From: Leptotrichia massiliensis
GTDB lineage: Bacteria > Fusobacteriota > Fusobacteriia > Fusobacteriales > Leptotrichiaceae
Assembly: GCF_900104625.1 (NCBI RefSeq)
Contig: NZ_FNVZ01000003.1
Coordinates: 1-64,000 of the forward strand
DNA: 64,000 nt
Direction: 5' to 3'
A program made the position numbers and the translations under genes. The notes below the pieces were generated by a model that searched no databases, had not been told where the DNA came from, and was given only the letters and a program-made list of their open reading frames with translations. Position 1 is the stretch's first letter. Each line of letters opens with the position of its first letter. Below, piece after piece: positions 6,858 to 58,800 of this stretch.

Positions 6858-7817
6858 TTATTTTGAACTAGAATTGCTATACAATAATTTTTCTCCAATT
6901 ACCATTTTACGTCCATTAATAATATCTACTCCCTTTTGAAGTTTTTTCCCTTCAAATTTTGCCTCCAAAATCAATATTCCCCCATTTGCAACTTTTACAA
7001 CAGGCCCTTTTTTATTGATAATTTCAACAATTGTACCATTTTCTATTTCATCTTCATATTTTTTTTCAATTTTTTCACTTTTGTAAATTTTTATGTTTTC
7101 ACCTTTTTCGTTGGAAGTATGTGCCGATGGAAATGGGTTTAATCCTCGAATCTGATTGTAAATAACTTCTTTTGTGTTATTCCAGTTGATTTTTGCCTGC
7201 TCCTTTGTAATTGGCTTTACTAAAGTGGCTTTGCTATCATCCTGCTTTTCTGCCTGAACTTCCTCATTTTCAATCAGTTTCAACGCCTTTGCAAGTCCAG
7301 TGGCTCCCAAATCCTTCAATTTATCGTGCAGAGTTCCAAGCGTATCATCTTCTGTAATTTCACAATATTCCTTTAAAATCACATCTCCAGAATCAAGCCC
7401 TTCCTCAATATACATTATGCTCACGCCTGTTTCTGTATCTCCGTTTAAAATAGCAGAATGAATAGGCGAAGCTCCTCTATATTTCGGCAAAAGTGAAGAA
7501 TGCACGTTTATTATCCCATATTTTGGAATATCAATTATTTCTTTTGACAAAATTTTTCCATAAGCCACAACCACGATTAAATCAGGATTTATTTCTTTAA
7601 TTTTGTTTATAACTTCTTCATCCTTCATTTTTTTTGGCTGAATAATTTCAACATCATTGTCAATTCCAAACTGCTTTACGGGAGAAAATATAATTTTATT
7701 TCCTCTGGCATTTATTTTATCCTCTTTTGTAAAAATAAGCTGTAAATTAGTATTTTTAAATACAACTTCCAGACTTGGTGTTGCAAATTCTGGCGTTCCC
7801 ATAAATATTGTCTTCAT
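6858..7817 (-). CDS. fmt: methionyl-tRNA formyltransferase
   Basis: Formylates initiator Met-tRNA using 10-formyl-THF. The 319-residue protein has the Fmt length. It opens MKTIFMGTPEFATPSLE, and the formyl-THF binding block with catalytic Asn-His (NVHSSLLPKYRGASPI) and the following GVSIMYIEEGLDSGD are intact. A C-terminal OB-like domain follows (KINWNNT onwards). It is 25 bases after def, the conserved def-fmt pair that acts at the two ends of the N-formyl-Met cycle. Confidence 0.97.
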   Translation of the reverse strand: MKTIFMGTPEFATPSLEVVFKNTNLQLIFTKEDKINARGNKIIFSPVKQFGIDNDVEIIQPKKMKDEEVINKIKEINPDLIVVVAYGKILSKEIIDIPKYGIINVHSSLLPKYRGASPIHSAILNGDTETGVSIMYIEEGLDSGDVILKEYCEITEDDTLGTLHDKLKDLGATGLAKALKLIENEEVQAEKQDDSKATLVKPITKEQAKINWNNTKEVIYNQIRGLNPFPSAHTSNEKGENIKIYKSEKIEKKYEDEIENGTIVEIINKKGPVVKVANGGILILEAKFEGKKLQKGVDIINGRKMVIGEKLLYSNSSSK

Positions 7818-7842
7818 TTAATTTCTCACTTTCCTGACTTTA

Positions 7843-8358
7843 TTAGTCCAAGTCTCTGTAAATTCTGCCTTTTGCAAAATCTTTCTTTAGAACATCTAAT
7901 TTTTTAGCAACTAATCTTTTATTCATAACCGAAAGTTTATCTGTAAACAGGATTCCTTCTATGTGATCAAATTCGTGCTGAAATGCCCTAGCCCACATTT
8001 CATCGAGTTCTTCAATGACTTCTTTCCCATTTTCATTCAAATATTTCACTTTAATTTTTGCAGGACGGTTTACTTTCTTAAAAACTCCAGGAATGCTCAA
8101 GCATCCTTCCTCCATATCTGCAATTTCTTCAGAAAACTCCAAAATTTCTGGATTAATAACTTTTTTTACAACTCCTTCGTGTTCCAGCACAAAAAATCTT
8201 TTGGCAATATCCACCTGATTTGCAGCAAGTCCCACTCCATTGGCTTTTCTCATAAGAGCAACCATTTCATCTAAAATTTCTCTTATATTATCATCAACTA
8301 CGTCAACTTTTTCTGATTTTTCACGTAAAGTTGGGTGTCCGTATAAAACTATTTTCAT
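7843..8358 (-). CDS. def: peptide deformylase
   Basis: Metalloenzyme that removes the formyl group from nascent proteins. The three family motifs are present in the 171-residue protein: GVGLAANQ (41-48), EGCLS (84-88, Cys86 as metal ligand) and QHEFDH (127-132, with His128 and His132 as ligands and Glu129 catalytic). The start at 8358 is preceded by AAGGAGAG. A further 10 codons upstream are open but not family-like. It is the first gene of the def-fmt-rex-folD-accB run. Confidence 0.97.
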   Translation of the reverse strand: MKIVLYGHPTLREKSEKVDVVDDNIREILDEMVALMRKANGVGLAANQVDIAKRFFVLEHEGVVKKVINPEILEFSEEIADMEEGCLSIPGVFKKVNRPAKIKVKYLNENGKEVIEELDEMWARAFQHEFDHIEGILFTDKLSVMNKRLVAKKLDVLKKDFAKGRIYRDLD

Positions 8359-8458
8359 TTTTATTTTTTCTCTCCTTATTAAACTCATTATTGTACATTT
8401 TATTTTATCATATTATTTGATAAATTTTAATACAAAACATCAATTAATTTTTTATTTA

Positions 8459-9343
8459 TTATTCCTCAATTTTCTTAAATCCCAATTTTGTTTCCGACAC
8501 AAGCACTGCAAAAAGCACCAGTCCAGCCCCAACTGCCACTCTTAGTGATAATCTTTCACTTAGTATAAAAAATGCAAAAAGTGGAGCAAAAAGCGATTCT
8601 GTTGACATTAGTATCGAAGCTCTTGTTGAAGTTGTATATTTTTGGCAGAATGTCTGTAATACTGTTGGTATGGCTGTTGAGAAGATTGTTAAATAAATTA
8701 TTGCAATTAACATCATTCCAGCAGGCTTTTGAATTTTGCTCGTATCTGAAAAGATAAAAATATTTATCACAAACAATATTCCCGCTACAAACATCTGCAT
8801 AATGACAAGTTTTAAAGGTTCAACTTTTTTACTGAAATATCCATTCGTAGCAATTTGCCCTGCAAAAAATATCGCACTTATAATTGTCAAAATATCACCA
8901 AAATTAAGATTTGCAAGATTCATCTTCCTGTCAAAACTTATCACAGCAACTCCCATTACACAAATAACCGAAGCCAAAAATGCAAAAATATCAGGGCGCT
9001 TTTTGTGCAAAAACCAAAAAATATAAGGCACAATTATAACATTAATTGATGTAAAGAAGGCATTTTTACTAGCAGTCGTGAGCATTGCTCCATAAGTTTG
9101 AAAGGCATATCCAAAAAACTGAAAAATTCCAACATTTACTCCAGCCAAAATATCCTTTTTCGTAAATCTACCGACTTTCCTAAAGAAAATTCCGTAAAGA
9201 ATAATCCCTCCAACAAGAAATCTAACTGCTGACAAATAGAACGGATCAACTCCTGTATTCAGCCCAATCTTCACAAATACAAACCCAAGTCCCCAAAATA
9301 TCCCTACAAAAAGCAGCCCAAAATCTGCTAAATACTGTTTCAC
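8459..9343 (-). CDS. EamA/DMT-superfamily transporter
   Basis: Ten-helix inner-membrane transporter of the drug/metabolite superfamily, with two EamA repeats (about residues 5-135 and 150-285). The first repeat starts with LLFVGIFWGLGFVFVK and the second ends with SERLSLRVAVGAGLVLFAV. The start is set at a GTG at 9343 because AGGAGAAG lies just before it. The ATG 18 bases upstream has no ribosome site and overlaps that Shine-Dalgarno. The substrate cannot be told from sequence. It is separate from recG by about 110 bases. Confidence 0.85.
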   Translation of the reverse strand: MKQYLADFGLLFVGIFWGLGFVFVKIGLNTGVDPFYLSAVRFLVGGIILYGIFFRKVGRFTKKDILAGVNVGIFQFFGYAFQTYGAMLTTASKNAFFTSINVIIVPYIFWFLHKKRPDIFAFLASVICVMGVAVISFDRKMNLANLNFGDILTIISAIFFAGQIATNGYFSKKVEPLKLVIMQMFVAGILFVINIFIFSDTSKIQKPAGMMLIAIIYLTIFSTAIPTVLQTFCQKYTTSTRASILMSTESLFAPLFAFFILSERLSLRVAVGAGLVLFAVLVSETKLGFKKIEE

Positions 9344-14997: not shown

Positions 14998-15172
14998 TAA
15001 GTATCCAACTTAAAGACTTTTATAATTTTATTTATAAGTATTATGATTTATAATAGTTTTTTCTATTTTTTTATTCAATTTTTTTTAACGTAAGGGCATC
15101 AGACGCCATGCCCTTACAACCACCGCTTAACGCAAAACTTTCTTATAAAGAAATTTTGCTTATTTAATATTT
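14998..15172 (-). repeat. multi-hairpin intergenic element, copy A (compact)
   Basis: Minus-strand copy of the element described under copy C. The terminal hairpin at 15090-15117 is a perfect 10-bp stem with an 8-base loop, read GTAAGGGCAT-GGCGTCTG-ATGCCCTTAC on the minus strand. The first stem is short here: GCAAAATTTC pairs with GAAAGTTTTGC (15132-15159), with one mismatch. The outer boundary is set by GGATACTTAA (minus strand, near 15000), which also ends copies B and C. Confidence 0.7.
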
Positions 15173-15225: not shown

Positions 15226-15665
15226 GAATGTCGTGATTTTTTTGGAATGAAAACGACTAAACACATTTATGTGTTTCTTTCGTCAAAACCTTTATAGCAA
15301 ATATATTTTATAGAGTTGTTCTAATATTTATTTGCGAAAGTGAGTGTTAGCGAGTTTCGTTTTCGTAGTAATTCAGGTTTATCCAAATAATAAATGTTTT
15401 GACTACTTTCCCAAATAAAATTTGGGAATATTTCAAAAAAATGCTTAGACGAGCCAGGGTTAGTGCGTAGCACTTTCGCTATTCTCTTTAATATGCCATT
15501 AGTTAAATATGTTAAAATAACTATTATTGCGAAATGAGGGGAAATGGCGACTGATTTCCCTTGCTTTATGAAAAGAAAAAACATAAGATTGTGAAAAAAT
15601 ATTTATTAATAATAAACAGTTTTTCATAATCTAAATAAAAATCCTTTATATGGATACTTAAGAAT
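15226..15665 (+). repeat. multi-hairpin intergenic element, copy B (long form)
   Basis: Begins TGTCGTGATTTTTTTGG and ends near ATGGATACTTAAG. The outer arms GTGATTTTTTTGGAAT and ATTTCAAAAAAATGC pair around a long interior, and ATGCTTAGACGAGCC follows. The middle hairpin is AGTGC-GTA-GCACT (15462-15474). The terminal hairpin is GGGAAAT-GGCGACTG-ATTTCCC (15539-15560), followed by TTGCTTTATGAAAAG. Open frames across it are considered accidental. Confidence 0.75.
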
Positions 15666-15753
15666 TAAATTTGATTTTTTTAATAAAACTATCGAATTAC
15701 TTATTGTAAAATTTTATTTCTATTATTTAAATGAGGTTTAGTATAATAAAGAT

Positions 15754-37548: not shown

Positions 37549-37890
37549 TTGTTTTAATAAACCGACGGAGCTTTTATTTGTTCGACTACGACTGTTTGAC
37601 GACTGAAAGGAGGAGTTTCGGAGTTGGGCAAATAAAAGTCGTAGTCTAGCCATAGGTTATTGCGTAGCAATCTTGCCAAATATTTTGATTATCAGGATAA
37701 ACCTTTACTGCAAGATAAGGATTTACGGCAATGAGCAATCCTACGAAAATAAAAAGAAAAAACATAATAATATGAAAAAATTTTTATTAATTAAAATATA
37801 TAAAAAATAATTTAATTTAATAATTACGAATTAGCTATTAAACAACCCTATTATGAAAATCTTGTATGGATACTTAAAAATTCGATTTAC
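37549..37890 (+). repeat. multi-hairpin intergenic element, copy C (reference copy)
   Basis: Stem 1: AGCTTTTATTTG (37569-37580) pairs with CAAATAAAAGT (37629-37639) and continues inwards through TTCGACT with AGTTGGG. GTCGTAGTCTAGCC follows. Stem 2: ATTGC-GTA-GCAAT (37659-37671). A longer pairing TCTTGC/GCAAGA spans 37671-37715. Stem 3: AGGATT (37718-37723) with AATCCT (37737-37742) around GGCAATGA. The tail GAAAAAACATAATAATATG matches copy G closely, and the 3' end carries ATGGATACTTAA. Confidence 0.8.
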
Positions 37891-44804: not shown

Positions 44805-44977
44805 ATTTATTATTTATTTTCAAACTAACTATTCTGTGAATTTATATTTTGAACTGTTTTGTTTAATAATTGTTTTTTCTTATAATAAATCCTATTTAAA
44901 TAACGAATTTATTACAAACTTCTCCAATAAAGGATAAAAAACTAGTATTTCAAAATAATTAAAATATAATTTTTTTG

Positions 44978-45183
44978 TTTTAATAAACCGACGGAGCTTT
45001 TATTTGTTCAACTGCGACTGTTTGACGACTGTAAGGAGGAGTTTCGGAGTTGGGCAAATAAAAGTCGTAGTCTAGCCATAGGTTGTAGGATTTGCGGCAA
45101 TGAGCAATCCTACGAAAAGAAAAAATTAAAAAGTTAAATGATTAGGAATCAGTTTATGAATTAGCTATTGAACAACCAAATTT
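44978..45183 (+). repeat. multi-hairpin intergenic element, copy D (no middle hairpin)
   Basis: Near-identical to copy C in stem 1: AGCTTTTATTTG (44995-45006) with CAAATAAAAGT (45055-45065). After TAGCCATAGG the middle hairpin and its surroundings are missing. The terminal hairpin follows at once: GTAGGATTTGC (45085-45095), loop GGCAATGA, GCAATCCTAC (45104-45113). The end GAATTAGCTATTGAACAACC matches copies C and G. Confidence 0.8.
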
Positions 45184-47039: not shown

Positions 47040-47221
47040 TTTTCCTCCTATTTTCTATTCCTATTTATTCAATTTTAAATATTTTGGCATTTTTATAAAA
47101 TATCACTTAATTTAGTAAGATATTATTTTTTAAATTATTCTATTAAATCTCTTTTTTCAATTTTGATATATGATGATTAATAAGTATTTTTTTTATTTTT
47201 ATTTATATTCAAGTTTATTTT

Positions 47222-47467
47222 AAGCAGGGAGATCAATCGCCATCTCCCCTGTTTCGCAATAACAGTTATTTTAGCATAATTAACTAGTTAACACTTAATA
47301 ATGTTCGCGAAAGTTCTACGAACTACCCACGCTTTACGCAAAACTTTCTTATAGAAAAAAATAGAACTTGCTTTTGAATATAGATTATTTCATCATAAAT
47401 AACTATATATAATTCAAAATTTATTCCAAAAGTTCAGACAGCTATTTTTCTTCTAACGAAATTTTGC
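47222..47467 (-). repeat. multi-hairpin intergenic element, copy E
   Basis: Minus-strand copy, closest to B. Middle hairpin AGTTC-GTA-GAACT (47312-47324). Terminal hairpin CAGGGGAGAT-GGCGATTG-ATCTCCCTG (47225-47251) with one bulged G. Stem 1 arms GAAATTTTGC (47458-47467) and GCAAAACTTTC (47338-47348) flank a 110-base interior. GTTATTGCGAAACAG matches GCGAAATGAG of copy B. A plus-strand fragment of a 5' arm (ATGTCGTGATTTTTT, 47512-47526) lies just outside. Confidence 0.7.
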
Positions 47468-47588
47468 TTATTTTTTGTTTTAGTTAAATTAATTGTTTTA
47501 ATTAAACTAAAAATGTCGTGATTTTTTAAAATAAAATTATCATGAGTTTTTACATTTTTTCAGTTTGTTGCAATATATTTGCCACAAA

Positions 47589-56598: not shown

Positions 56599-56710
56599 AT
56601 TTCTCATCTTCCCTCATTTTCTATTTATTTAAAAACTAATTTTATGAATAATTATTTTTTTATTTATATAGCTATCTTTTTTTTAATAAAATTATTTGTT
56701 ATAATCAAAT

Positions 56711-56905
56711 AAAAATGTCGTGATTTTTTGGAAATAAAATCGACTGTTTGAGCGAAGTTTTACGTAGCGAGTTTCGATTTTGTTTTCAAAAAATGCTTAG
56801 ACAAGCGGGGATTGCAAAGGGGATGGCGACTGTTCCCCTTTGCTTTATAAAAAAAGAAAAAATATAAAAATAAAAAAATTAACTATTAATACCAAAAAAT
56901 TTATG
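56711..56905 (+). repeat. multi-hairpin intergenic element, copy F
   Basis: Stem 1 is long: ATTTTTTGGAAATAAAATCG (56723-56742) with CGATTTTGTTTTCAAAAAAT (56775-56794), few mismatches. Its interior is CTGTTTGAGCGAAG then ACGTAGCGAGTTT. TGCTTAGACAAGC follows. The terminal hairpin is a perfect 10-bp stem, GCAAAGGGGA (56814-56823) with TCCCCTTTGC (56834-56843), around GGCGACTG. There is no separate middle hairpin. Confidence 0.8.
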
Positions 56906-57024: not shown

Positions 57025-57263
57025 TAAATAACCCGTCGGAGCATTTTTCTGTGCTGGCAAAACTGTTTGAGCATAGCGAGTTTTTTGTCAGTATAGAAAA
57101 ATGTCGTAGACTAGCCATAGGTTGTAGGATTTGCGGCAATGAGCAATCCTACGAAAATAAAAAAGAAAAAACATAGTAATATGAAAAAATATTTATTAAT
57201 CAAAATATCTAAAAAATAATTTAATTGAATAATTACGAATTTGCTATTAAACAACCTTATTAT
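57025..57263 (+). repeat. multi-hairpin intergenic element, copy G
   Basis: Stem 1 differs in sequence from C and D yet pairs: CATTTTTCT (57042-57050) with AGAAAAATG (57095-57103), continuing GTGCTGGCAAAAC with GTTTTTTGTCAGTAT. The interior AACTGTTTGAGCATAGCGAG is shared with F. Terminal hairpin GTAGGATTTGC-GGCAATGA-GCAATCCTAC (57124-57152) is the same as in D. The tail to GCTATTAAACAACC is nearly identical to copy C. Confidence 0.8.
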
Positions 57264-57310
57264 AAAAATTTATTCCTATTTCTAAACGGGATTTAGTATT
57301 AATATTTATT

Positions 57311-58766: not shown

Positions 58767-58800
58767 CTAAAAATTGTCGTGATTTTTTGGAAATAAAAAC
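58767..58800 (+). repeat. fragment of the multi-hairpin element (5' arm only)
   Basis: AATTGTCGTGATTTTTTGG and the following AAATAAAAA match the start of copy F almost base for base. The rest of the element is missing. Confidence 0.6.

What the first reader, a model, noticed from the sequence alone, without database searches (positions are those of the whole stretch)
37549..37890. Family of multi-hairpin intergenic elements with conserved loops and covarying stems
At least seven copies (14998-, 15226+, 37549+, 44978+, 47222-, 56711+, 57025+) and two to three 5'-arm fragments lie only between genes. Shared parts: an outer stem with CTGTTTGAGC...GCGAGTTTC inside, a CTTAGAC/TAGTCTAGCC linker, an optional GTA-loop hairpin, a terminal hairpin with an 8-base loop, and an A-rich tail. 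Stem sequences differ between copies but stay complementary. Ordinary insertion sequences keep sequence, not pairing, so a folded RNA or single-stranded DNA seems to be under selection. I know of no named family that fits with confidence.
Basis: seen in the sequence. Interest (0 to 1): 0.85.

Follow-up and report, generated by a model that had tools for sequence, protein, structure and literature searches.

The report
Mobile repeats with a conserved fold
The repeats between genes in this probable Leptotrichia genome belong to a so far unnamed, mobile, non-coding DNA family whose transcribed-looking strand keeps the same folded shape although its letters change, and relatives of it are scattered through genomes of many bacterial phyla.

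Summary
Seven copies and two 5'-arm fragments lie between genes in the window, and 54 model matches lie in the genome. Stems change while pairing stays. The fold is real. The apical loop CTGTYTGA/GAGTTT and its closing stem occur across phyla (Bacteroidota, Bacillota, Pseudomonadota and others), with 251 double-changed pair cells against 93 in shuffles. A model built only from those other phyla finds four window copies as its top four hits. One strand is clearly the functional one: it folds better than its complement in 98 of 108 copies, against 45 of 96 in a control. The elements are also mobile. In a sister species 35 copies of about 470 bp share defined ends, and 25 have an exact 10-bp target duplication (0.8 expected). 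Here, several type-B copies sit inside a different inverted-repeat MITE. Private changes in young copies mostly break pairs, so the fold seems selected in the spreading lineage, not at each site. No transposase partner was found. Rfam has no match. Best reading: an unnamed cross-phylum family of mobile repeats carrying a strand-specific, probably transcribed RNA.

The parts
56717..56858 (+). Type A unit: GTC:GAC outer pairs, 21-bp stem, CTGTTTGA/GAGTTT apical loop, TTAGACAAGC linker, terminal hairpin GCAAAGGGGA-TGGCGACTGT-TCCCCTTTGC, start of A-rich tail
   Evidence: R1 E 2.5e-37; R2 built from other phyla E 8.9e-10; fold z -4.06
56699..56715 (+). -10-like TATAAT (in TTATAATCAAATAAAAA) at the conserved distance upstream of the type A unit
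   Evidence: across 48 upstream regions exact TATAAT in 17 against 6.1 in shuffles, mostly 17-19 nt before the core
57030..57168 (+). Type B unit with start of A-rich tail; terminal hairpin loop GGCAATGA
   Evidence: R1 E 4e-14, R2 E 3.4e-8, fold z -5.07
57281..57299 (-). Right terminal inverted repeat (ATACTAAATCCCGTTTAGA) of the MITE that carries the 57030 type B unit
   Evidence: 57 matches in the genome against 1 for the reversed control
44988..45128 (+). Type B' unit (stem CTTTTATTTGTTCAACT, outer GAC:GTC instead of GTC:GAC)
   Evidence: R1 E 2e-11, R2 E 3e-5, z -4.95
44884..44900 (+). Degenerate left terminal repeat of the MITE around the 44988 unit
   Evidence: sequence AATAAATCCTATTTAAA
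37558..37766 (+). Type B' unit with the extra GTA-loop hairpin (ATTGCGTAGCAAT) and A-rich tail; the copy named in the finding
   Evidence: R1 E 6e-7, R2 E 0.001, rod fold z -2.88; repeated tail homology
15229..15585 (+). Type A unit with a long insert in the apical loop (several further hairpins) and GTA-loop hairpin
   Evidence: fold z -4.38; R1 hit 15495-15579
15726..15744 (-). MITE-type terminal inverted repeat right of the 15229 unit
15070..15161 (-). Type C unit, apical part deleted but arms still pairing; head-to-head with the 15229 unit
   Evidence: R1 E 4e-7, z -3.36
47209..47472 (-). Type C unit with GTA-loop hairpin (AGTTCGTAGAACT) and terminal hairpin
   Evidence: R1 E 0.026; C arms and loop found directly
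47515..47546 (+). Type A 5'-arm fragment, head-to-head with the 47209 type C unit
58776..58788 (+). Type A 5'-arm fragment

Best explanation
These are copies of a non-coding, structure-conserved repeat unit of about 130 to 350 nt that spreads as mobile DNA. The sense strand folds into a long rod with conserved internal loops, capped by CTGTYTGA-GC..GC-GAGTTT, followed by a linker and a terminal hairpin. In relatives from other phyla the linker pairs with that hairpin's loop as a likely pseudoknot. SHOWN by computation: the fold is maintained by double changes, is strand-specific, is shared with many other phyla, and the units move or ride on moving DNA (target duplications in a sister species, terminal inverted repeats here). 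INFERRED: the strand is used as RNA, made from a promoter just upstream (conserved TATAAT at a fixed distance). INFERRED: the fold serves the element's own spread or survival, because young copies lose pairing by private mutations while differences between subfamilies keep it. INFERRED: in Leptotrichia the unit is carried in trans by cut-and-paste (DDE-type) transposases that recognise the outer terminal repeats. Two unrelated end types carry the same unit, so the unit looks like cargo that different vehicles have picked up.
For: Covariation: type A, 0 of 500 shuffles reach the observed score; cross-phylum apical stem, score 0.541 against 0.171 shuffled and 0.21-0.26 when slid by one column. 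Homology across phyla: R2, built without Fusobacteriota, ranks four window copies 1-4. Pseudoknot linker/loop: 53 exact complements of 94 parsed, against 14.6 permuted (maximum 23 in 1000), with three matching variants CTTGAT, CTTGAA, CTTGAC. Strand: 98/108 against control 45/96; arms alone 92/107; Leptotrichia A 26/26, B 19/19. Mobility: 46 left ends in G012, 25 of 35 complete copies with an exact 10-bp duplication; copy number 1-53 per genome within the genus; terminal repeats in this genome 57 against 1. Cargo behaviour: coreless or core-reduced copies (L346, L352; 117-143-bp pairs). Promoter. Not tied to host genes: of 84 copies with both neighbours called, the upstream gene is in the sense direction in 40 and antisense in 44.
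Against: No transcript data. G.T pairs are also tolerated in single-stranded DNA, so the strand test cannot separate RNA from ssDNA. Private substitutions show no G.U over A.C excess in G012 (6:10 and 6:7), so strand selection is seen between lineages, not within young copies. Type B in G012 keeps more pairing in private changes (10 of 27) than type A (4 of 43). Copies are related, so counts of cells are not independent events. The TATAAT may be conserved by descent. No autonomous element or transposase with matching ends was found. The link between the Leptotrichia terminal hairpin and the pseudoknotted hairpin elsewhere is by position and partial motif only.
Confidence: 0.66

Rival explanations
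1. REP-like single-stranded DNA element: the sense strand folds as ssDNA and is recognised by a Y1 (HUH) transposase, as REPs are by RAYTs, including the 'atypical secondary structures' reported for TnpA-REP subclass 2.6 of Bacteroidetes.
For: Strand-specific hairpins, intergenic, no orientation to genes, dozens of copies, many phyla; published atypical structures flank subclass 2.6 genes and have copies elsewhere in the genome (PMC6006769).
Against: No Y1_Tnp gene in the window's genome, G008, G010, G026 or G029, although they hold copies. 29 of 30 loci holding a Y1 hit have no apical motif within 1.5 kb; the exception is one copy of a multicopy IS200 in G012. Exact 10-bp target duplications in G012 are not produced by Y1 transposases (established knowledge of IS200/IS605).
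Confidence: 0.17
2. Ordinary MITE: a deletion derivative of an insertion sequence whose internal hairpins are an incidental or transposase-related part of the ends.
For: Terminal inverted repeats and 10-bp target duplications in G012, TA-flanked repeats here.
Against: The same folded core sits behind two unrelated sets of ends, and stems covary across phyla.
Confidence: 0.1
3. Host non-coding RNA or regulatory element that works at each site (3' UTR element, attenuator, sRNA).
For: Conserved fold, promoter-like hexamer, intergenic placement.
Against: Orientation to neighbours is mixed; decayed and truncated copies abound; private mutations mostly break pairs in type A of G012; copy number runs from 1 to 53 within one genus.
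Confidence: 0.07

Closest known systems
Bacterial MITEs with folded transcripts (NEMIS/Correia, ERIC, bcr1, RUP, BOX)
   Same: Non-coding, intergenic, multicopy, terminal repeats and target duplications, strong secondary structure, modular (BOX-like)
   Different: Here the pairing is kept while stem sequence is replaced, the same core has two different sets of ends, and relatives reach many phyla
REP/REPIN elements with RAYT (TnpA-REP), including subclass 2.6 atypical structures and CGTC REPs/TIRtrons (PMC6006769, PMC3733652)
   Same: Strand-specific hairpins, dozens of copies, often inverted pairs
   Different: 130-350 nt instead of 20-65, no GTAG foot, no Y1 gene in several host genomes, 10-bp target duplication in G012
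MRSC-65-2 mobile/repeat sequence candidate (PMC11109978)
   Same: Single long stem with strong covariation, dozens of copies per genome, diverse phyla
   Different: Its reported conserved repeat is UYCCGG; ours is CTGTYTGA/GAGTTT. Alignment not available here, so identity is unlikely but not excluded
131-bp intergenic repeat of Fusobacterium nucleatum (PMC1924603)
   Same: Intergenic, tens of copies, same phylum
   Different: Sequence is in a figure only and could not be compared

Membership tests
[quoted passage not shown]
   G012 compound GACAGAG...AACCATC with imperfect repeats; type B here ATACTAAACCCC. For type A of this genome none was found
[quoted passage not shown]
   25 of 35 copies 10 bp in G012; not shown for the window copies
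[quoted passage not shown]
   Not found: PF01609 absent in G012; PF00872 present in 15 near-identical copies but with other ends and 8-bp duplications; other families not searched. Not required of a decayed MITE family
REP / RAYT system | Y1 transposase gene flanked by the repeats | tested here: not met
   No PF01797 in G000; no flanking motif at Y1 genes elsewhere bar one likely coincidence
REP / RAYT system | GTAG/GTGG tetranucleotide at hairpin foot, 20-65 nt | tested here: not met
   Units 130-350 nt; core starts GTCGTG/GTCGGAGC
Any Rfam 15 family | Score at or above gathering threshold | tested here: not met
   Window and 16 loci from other phyla; permissive search best chance hit E 0.036
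MRSC-65-2 (PMC11109978) | UYCCGG repeat in a single long stem | tested here: inconclusive
   Not seen as a conserved repeat in the alignments; published alignment not available
23S rRNA intervening sequence elements (PF05635) | Four-helix-bundle gene associated with the hairpin | tested here: not met
   Absent in all seven Leptotrichia genomes tested; no motif beside the 10 genes found elsewhere

The most novel reading that the evidence does not exclude
A cross-phylum class of selfish structured RNA: a pseudoknotted, rod-shaped transcript that acts with an unidentified partner protein to spread or protect its own DNA copies, and that has been picked up by unrelated transposons as cargo.
Probability: 0.3. 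Interest if true: 0.87.

Novelty: new variant of a known kind. Interest (0 to 1): 0.62.

Why it matters
Most bacterial interspersed repeats are known as short DNA palindromes or as MITEs defined by their ends. Here the thing conserved over many phyla is a strand-specific fold with invariant loops, while the ends, stems and hosts change. That makes a long-standing question testable: what are such folded repeats for, and which protein recognises them? It also gives a search model for a family that Rfam does not yet hold.

Tried and rejected
IS4-type transposase as carrier in G012: none. An IS1182-like gene near a G005 copy: ends do not match. IS256 (PF00872): 15 near-identical copies in G012 and tempting end similarity (GTGTAAAAATTTT), but its ends and 8-bp duplications differ. 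Y1/RAYT. 23S IVP gene. A shared neighbour protein within 800 bp in 119 loci: only housekeeping families, large common families and ORFs on the element itself. Two copies 1.6 kb apart flanking a gene: the gene between is an ordinary chromosomal gene, not a transposase, by its sequence. Terminator role: the terminal hairpin is followed by A, not T. Literature by sequence string: only unrelated papers. Phage or plasmid origin: no blastn match in phage or plasmid records; only 2 exact motif hits in 2.9 million viral contigs.

Full report
THE OBSERVATION. The window is C3:1-64000 of a 2.54-Mb genome in five contigs, probably Leptotrichia (inference from genome sizes of the 13 genomes of the genus and its sister genera; names are withheld). 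A covariance model of type A (R1, nine genome copies, 37 pairs) finds the seven window places. Whole-genome searches find 54 places by blastn with one stretch and 54 by R1. The units fold better than shuffled sequence, except the 3' part of the 37549 copy on its own.

ANATOMY. Four subtypes (A, B, B', C) share one plan, read directly from the sequences: a short outer closure, an internal loop, a long stem of about 20 bp, the apical loop 5'-CTGTYTGA / GAGTTT-3' around a short helix, a linker (TTAGAC-GAGC or TAGTCTAGCC), an optional GTA-loop hairpin, a terminal hairpin with an 8-base loop GGCRAYKR, and an A-rich tail. The stems differ between subtypes but pair in each. Type B closes with GTC:GAC, B' with GAC:GTC. 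In type A, 8 pairs carry double changes (3.8 in shuffles) and 99.4% of cells pair. In this genome type A and type C units often stand head to head, so one element can hold two diverged inverted units.

MOBILITY. R1 finds the family in all 13 genomes of the genus, 1 to 53 copies each. In G012 the copies are young: 46 left ends match GACAGAGTAAAATAGTTAGGGG against 0 for the control. The element is a B unit and an A unit head to head, 428-480 bp in the 35 copies with both ends, and 25 of these have an exact 10-bp target duplication, against 0.8 (maximum 5) when flanks are permuted. In the window's genome several type B units lie between other ends, ATACTAAACCCC...GGGGTTTAGTAT (57 genome matches against 1 for the reversed control). 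Copies with those ends but without or with reduced cores exist in both genomes. So the folded unit travels behind two unrelated sets of ends.

A WIDER FAMILY. Reading the flanks shows the same plan: stems of quite different sequence, internal loops of the type GCGTTAAG/TTTAGC, often an AGCC linker and a terminal hairpin. In many of these the linker CTTGAN is complementary to the hairpin loop NTCAAG, a likely pseudoknot: 53 exact complements against 14.6 permuted. The arms were not used for selection, so their pairing is a fair test: covariation score 0.541 against 0.171 in shuffles, 251 double-changed cells against 93. A model from these sequences, with no Fusobacteriota in it, ranks the window copies at 56732, 57051, 45006 and 37580 first to fourth (E 9e-10 to 1e-3; next hit 0.34).

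STRAND AND LEVEL OF SELECTION. If double-stranded DNA were what matters, both strands would fold alike. The sense strand is more stable in 98 of 108 cross-phylum copies; 900 nt away it is 45 of 96. With the conserved apex left out it is still 92 of 107, and 26/26 and 19/19 for Leptotrichia A and B arms. So one strand, as RNA or as single-stranded DNA, is the working form. A TATAAT-like hexamer stands 17-19 nt upstream of many type A cores (17 of 48 exact within the window searched, 6.1 in shuffles), which favours RNA, although common descent contributes. Private changes of single young copies mostly break pairs in type A of G012 (33 of 43 not pairing, 6 G.U, 4 Watson-Crick) and fall in stems nearly as often as outside, while shared and between-subfamily changes keep pairs more often. 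That fits selection in the propagating lineage and decay after insertion. Type B of G012 shows this less clearly.

PARTNER. No transposase with matching ends was found: IS4-type absent in G012 and G000, IS256 present in G012 but with other ends and 8-bp duplications, Y1/RAYT absent from the window's genome and, with one likely coincidence, not flanked by the motif elsewhere, 23S-IVP not flanked, no shared neighbour protein. The family is chromosomal, not phage or plasmid borne as far as searched.

KNOWN OR NOT. Rfam 15 has no match. Nearest published things are TnpA-REP subclass 2.6 'atypical secondary structures' (PMC6006769), CGTC REPs and TIRtrons (PMC3733652), the MRSC-65-2 motif and the 250 mobile/repeat candidates counted in PMC11109978, and a 131-bp repeat of F. 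nucleatum (PMC1924603). None could be shown to be the same; their figures and supplements were out of reach, so prior listing under a code number is possible.

VERDICT. A real, mobile, structure-conserved repeat family with a strand-specific fold, of a known general kind (small non-autonomous repeats) but an unusual variant: the fold is what is conserved, across phyla, behind different ends. The RNA step, the role of the fold and the partner protein are inference or open.

Noticed in passing
G012:C1 (L358, L362, L365, L367-L378): Fifteen near-identical IS256-family transposase genes (409 aa) with 8-bp target duplications, present only in this species of the genus apart from fragments; a recent burst parallel to that of the folded repeats.
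   Followed up: partly
own genome, e.g. L038, L056, L060: A separate MITE family of about 120-145 bp with ends ATACTAAACCCC / ATACTATTTCCC, TA-flanked, without the folded core.
   Followed up: partly
L382-L401 (G058): Upstream of the folded unit three different leader sequences recur (CACAGAGAAAAAGAGAGAGTTTCACAGAG..., GATTTCACAAGATGATTTCTTAACGG..., AAGCGCAAAGGTTTACC...), so the repeat is longer and modular on its 5' side there.
   Followed up: no
L397, L401 (G058): Two copies carry the same extra hairpin-like insert of about 40 nt inside the terminal hairpin GGTTAC...GTAAC.
   Followed up: no
L424 (G050:C2:1373732-1374046): A GC-rich stretch with a 23S-IVP gene in an otherwise AT-rich fusobacterial genome; looks like foreign or contaminating sequence in that assembly.
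   Followed up: no
L140 (G003:C1:582500-593500): Three type A units within 8 kb, one about 200 bp beyond and antisense to a TnpB-like gene (7675-8772).
   Followed up: partly
L178, L245, L248: In three of 119 cross-phylum loci (Gammaproteobacteria, Ralstonia, Arcicella) a neighbour gene is a citrate synthase; probably chance.
   Followed up: partly
window 15229-15585 (+): This copy and the left half of L082 replace CTGTTTGA by TAAACAC...GTGTTT with further hairpins: a swapped apical module.
   Followed up: no
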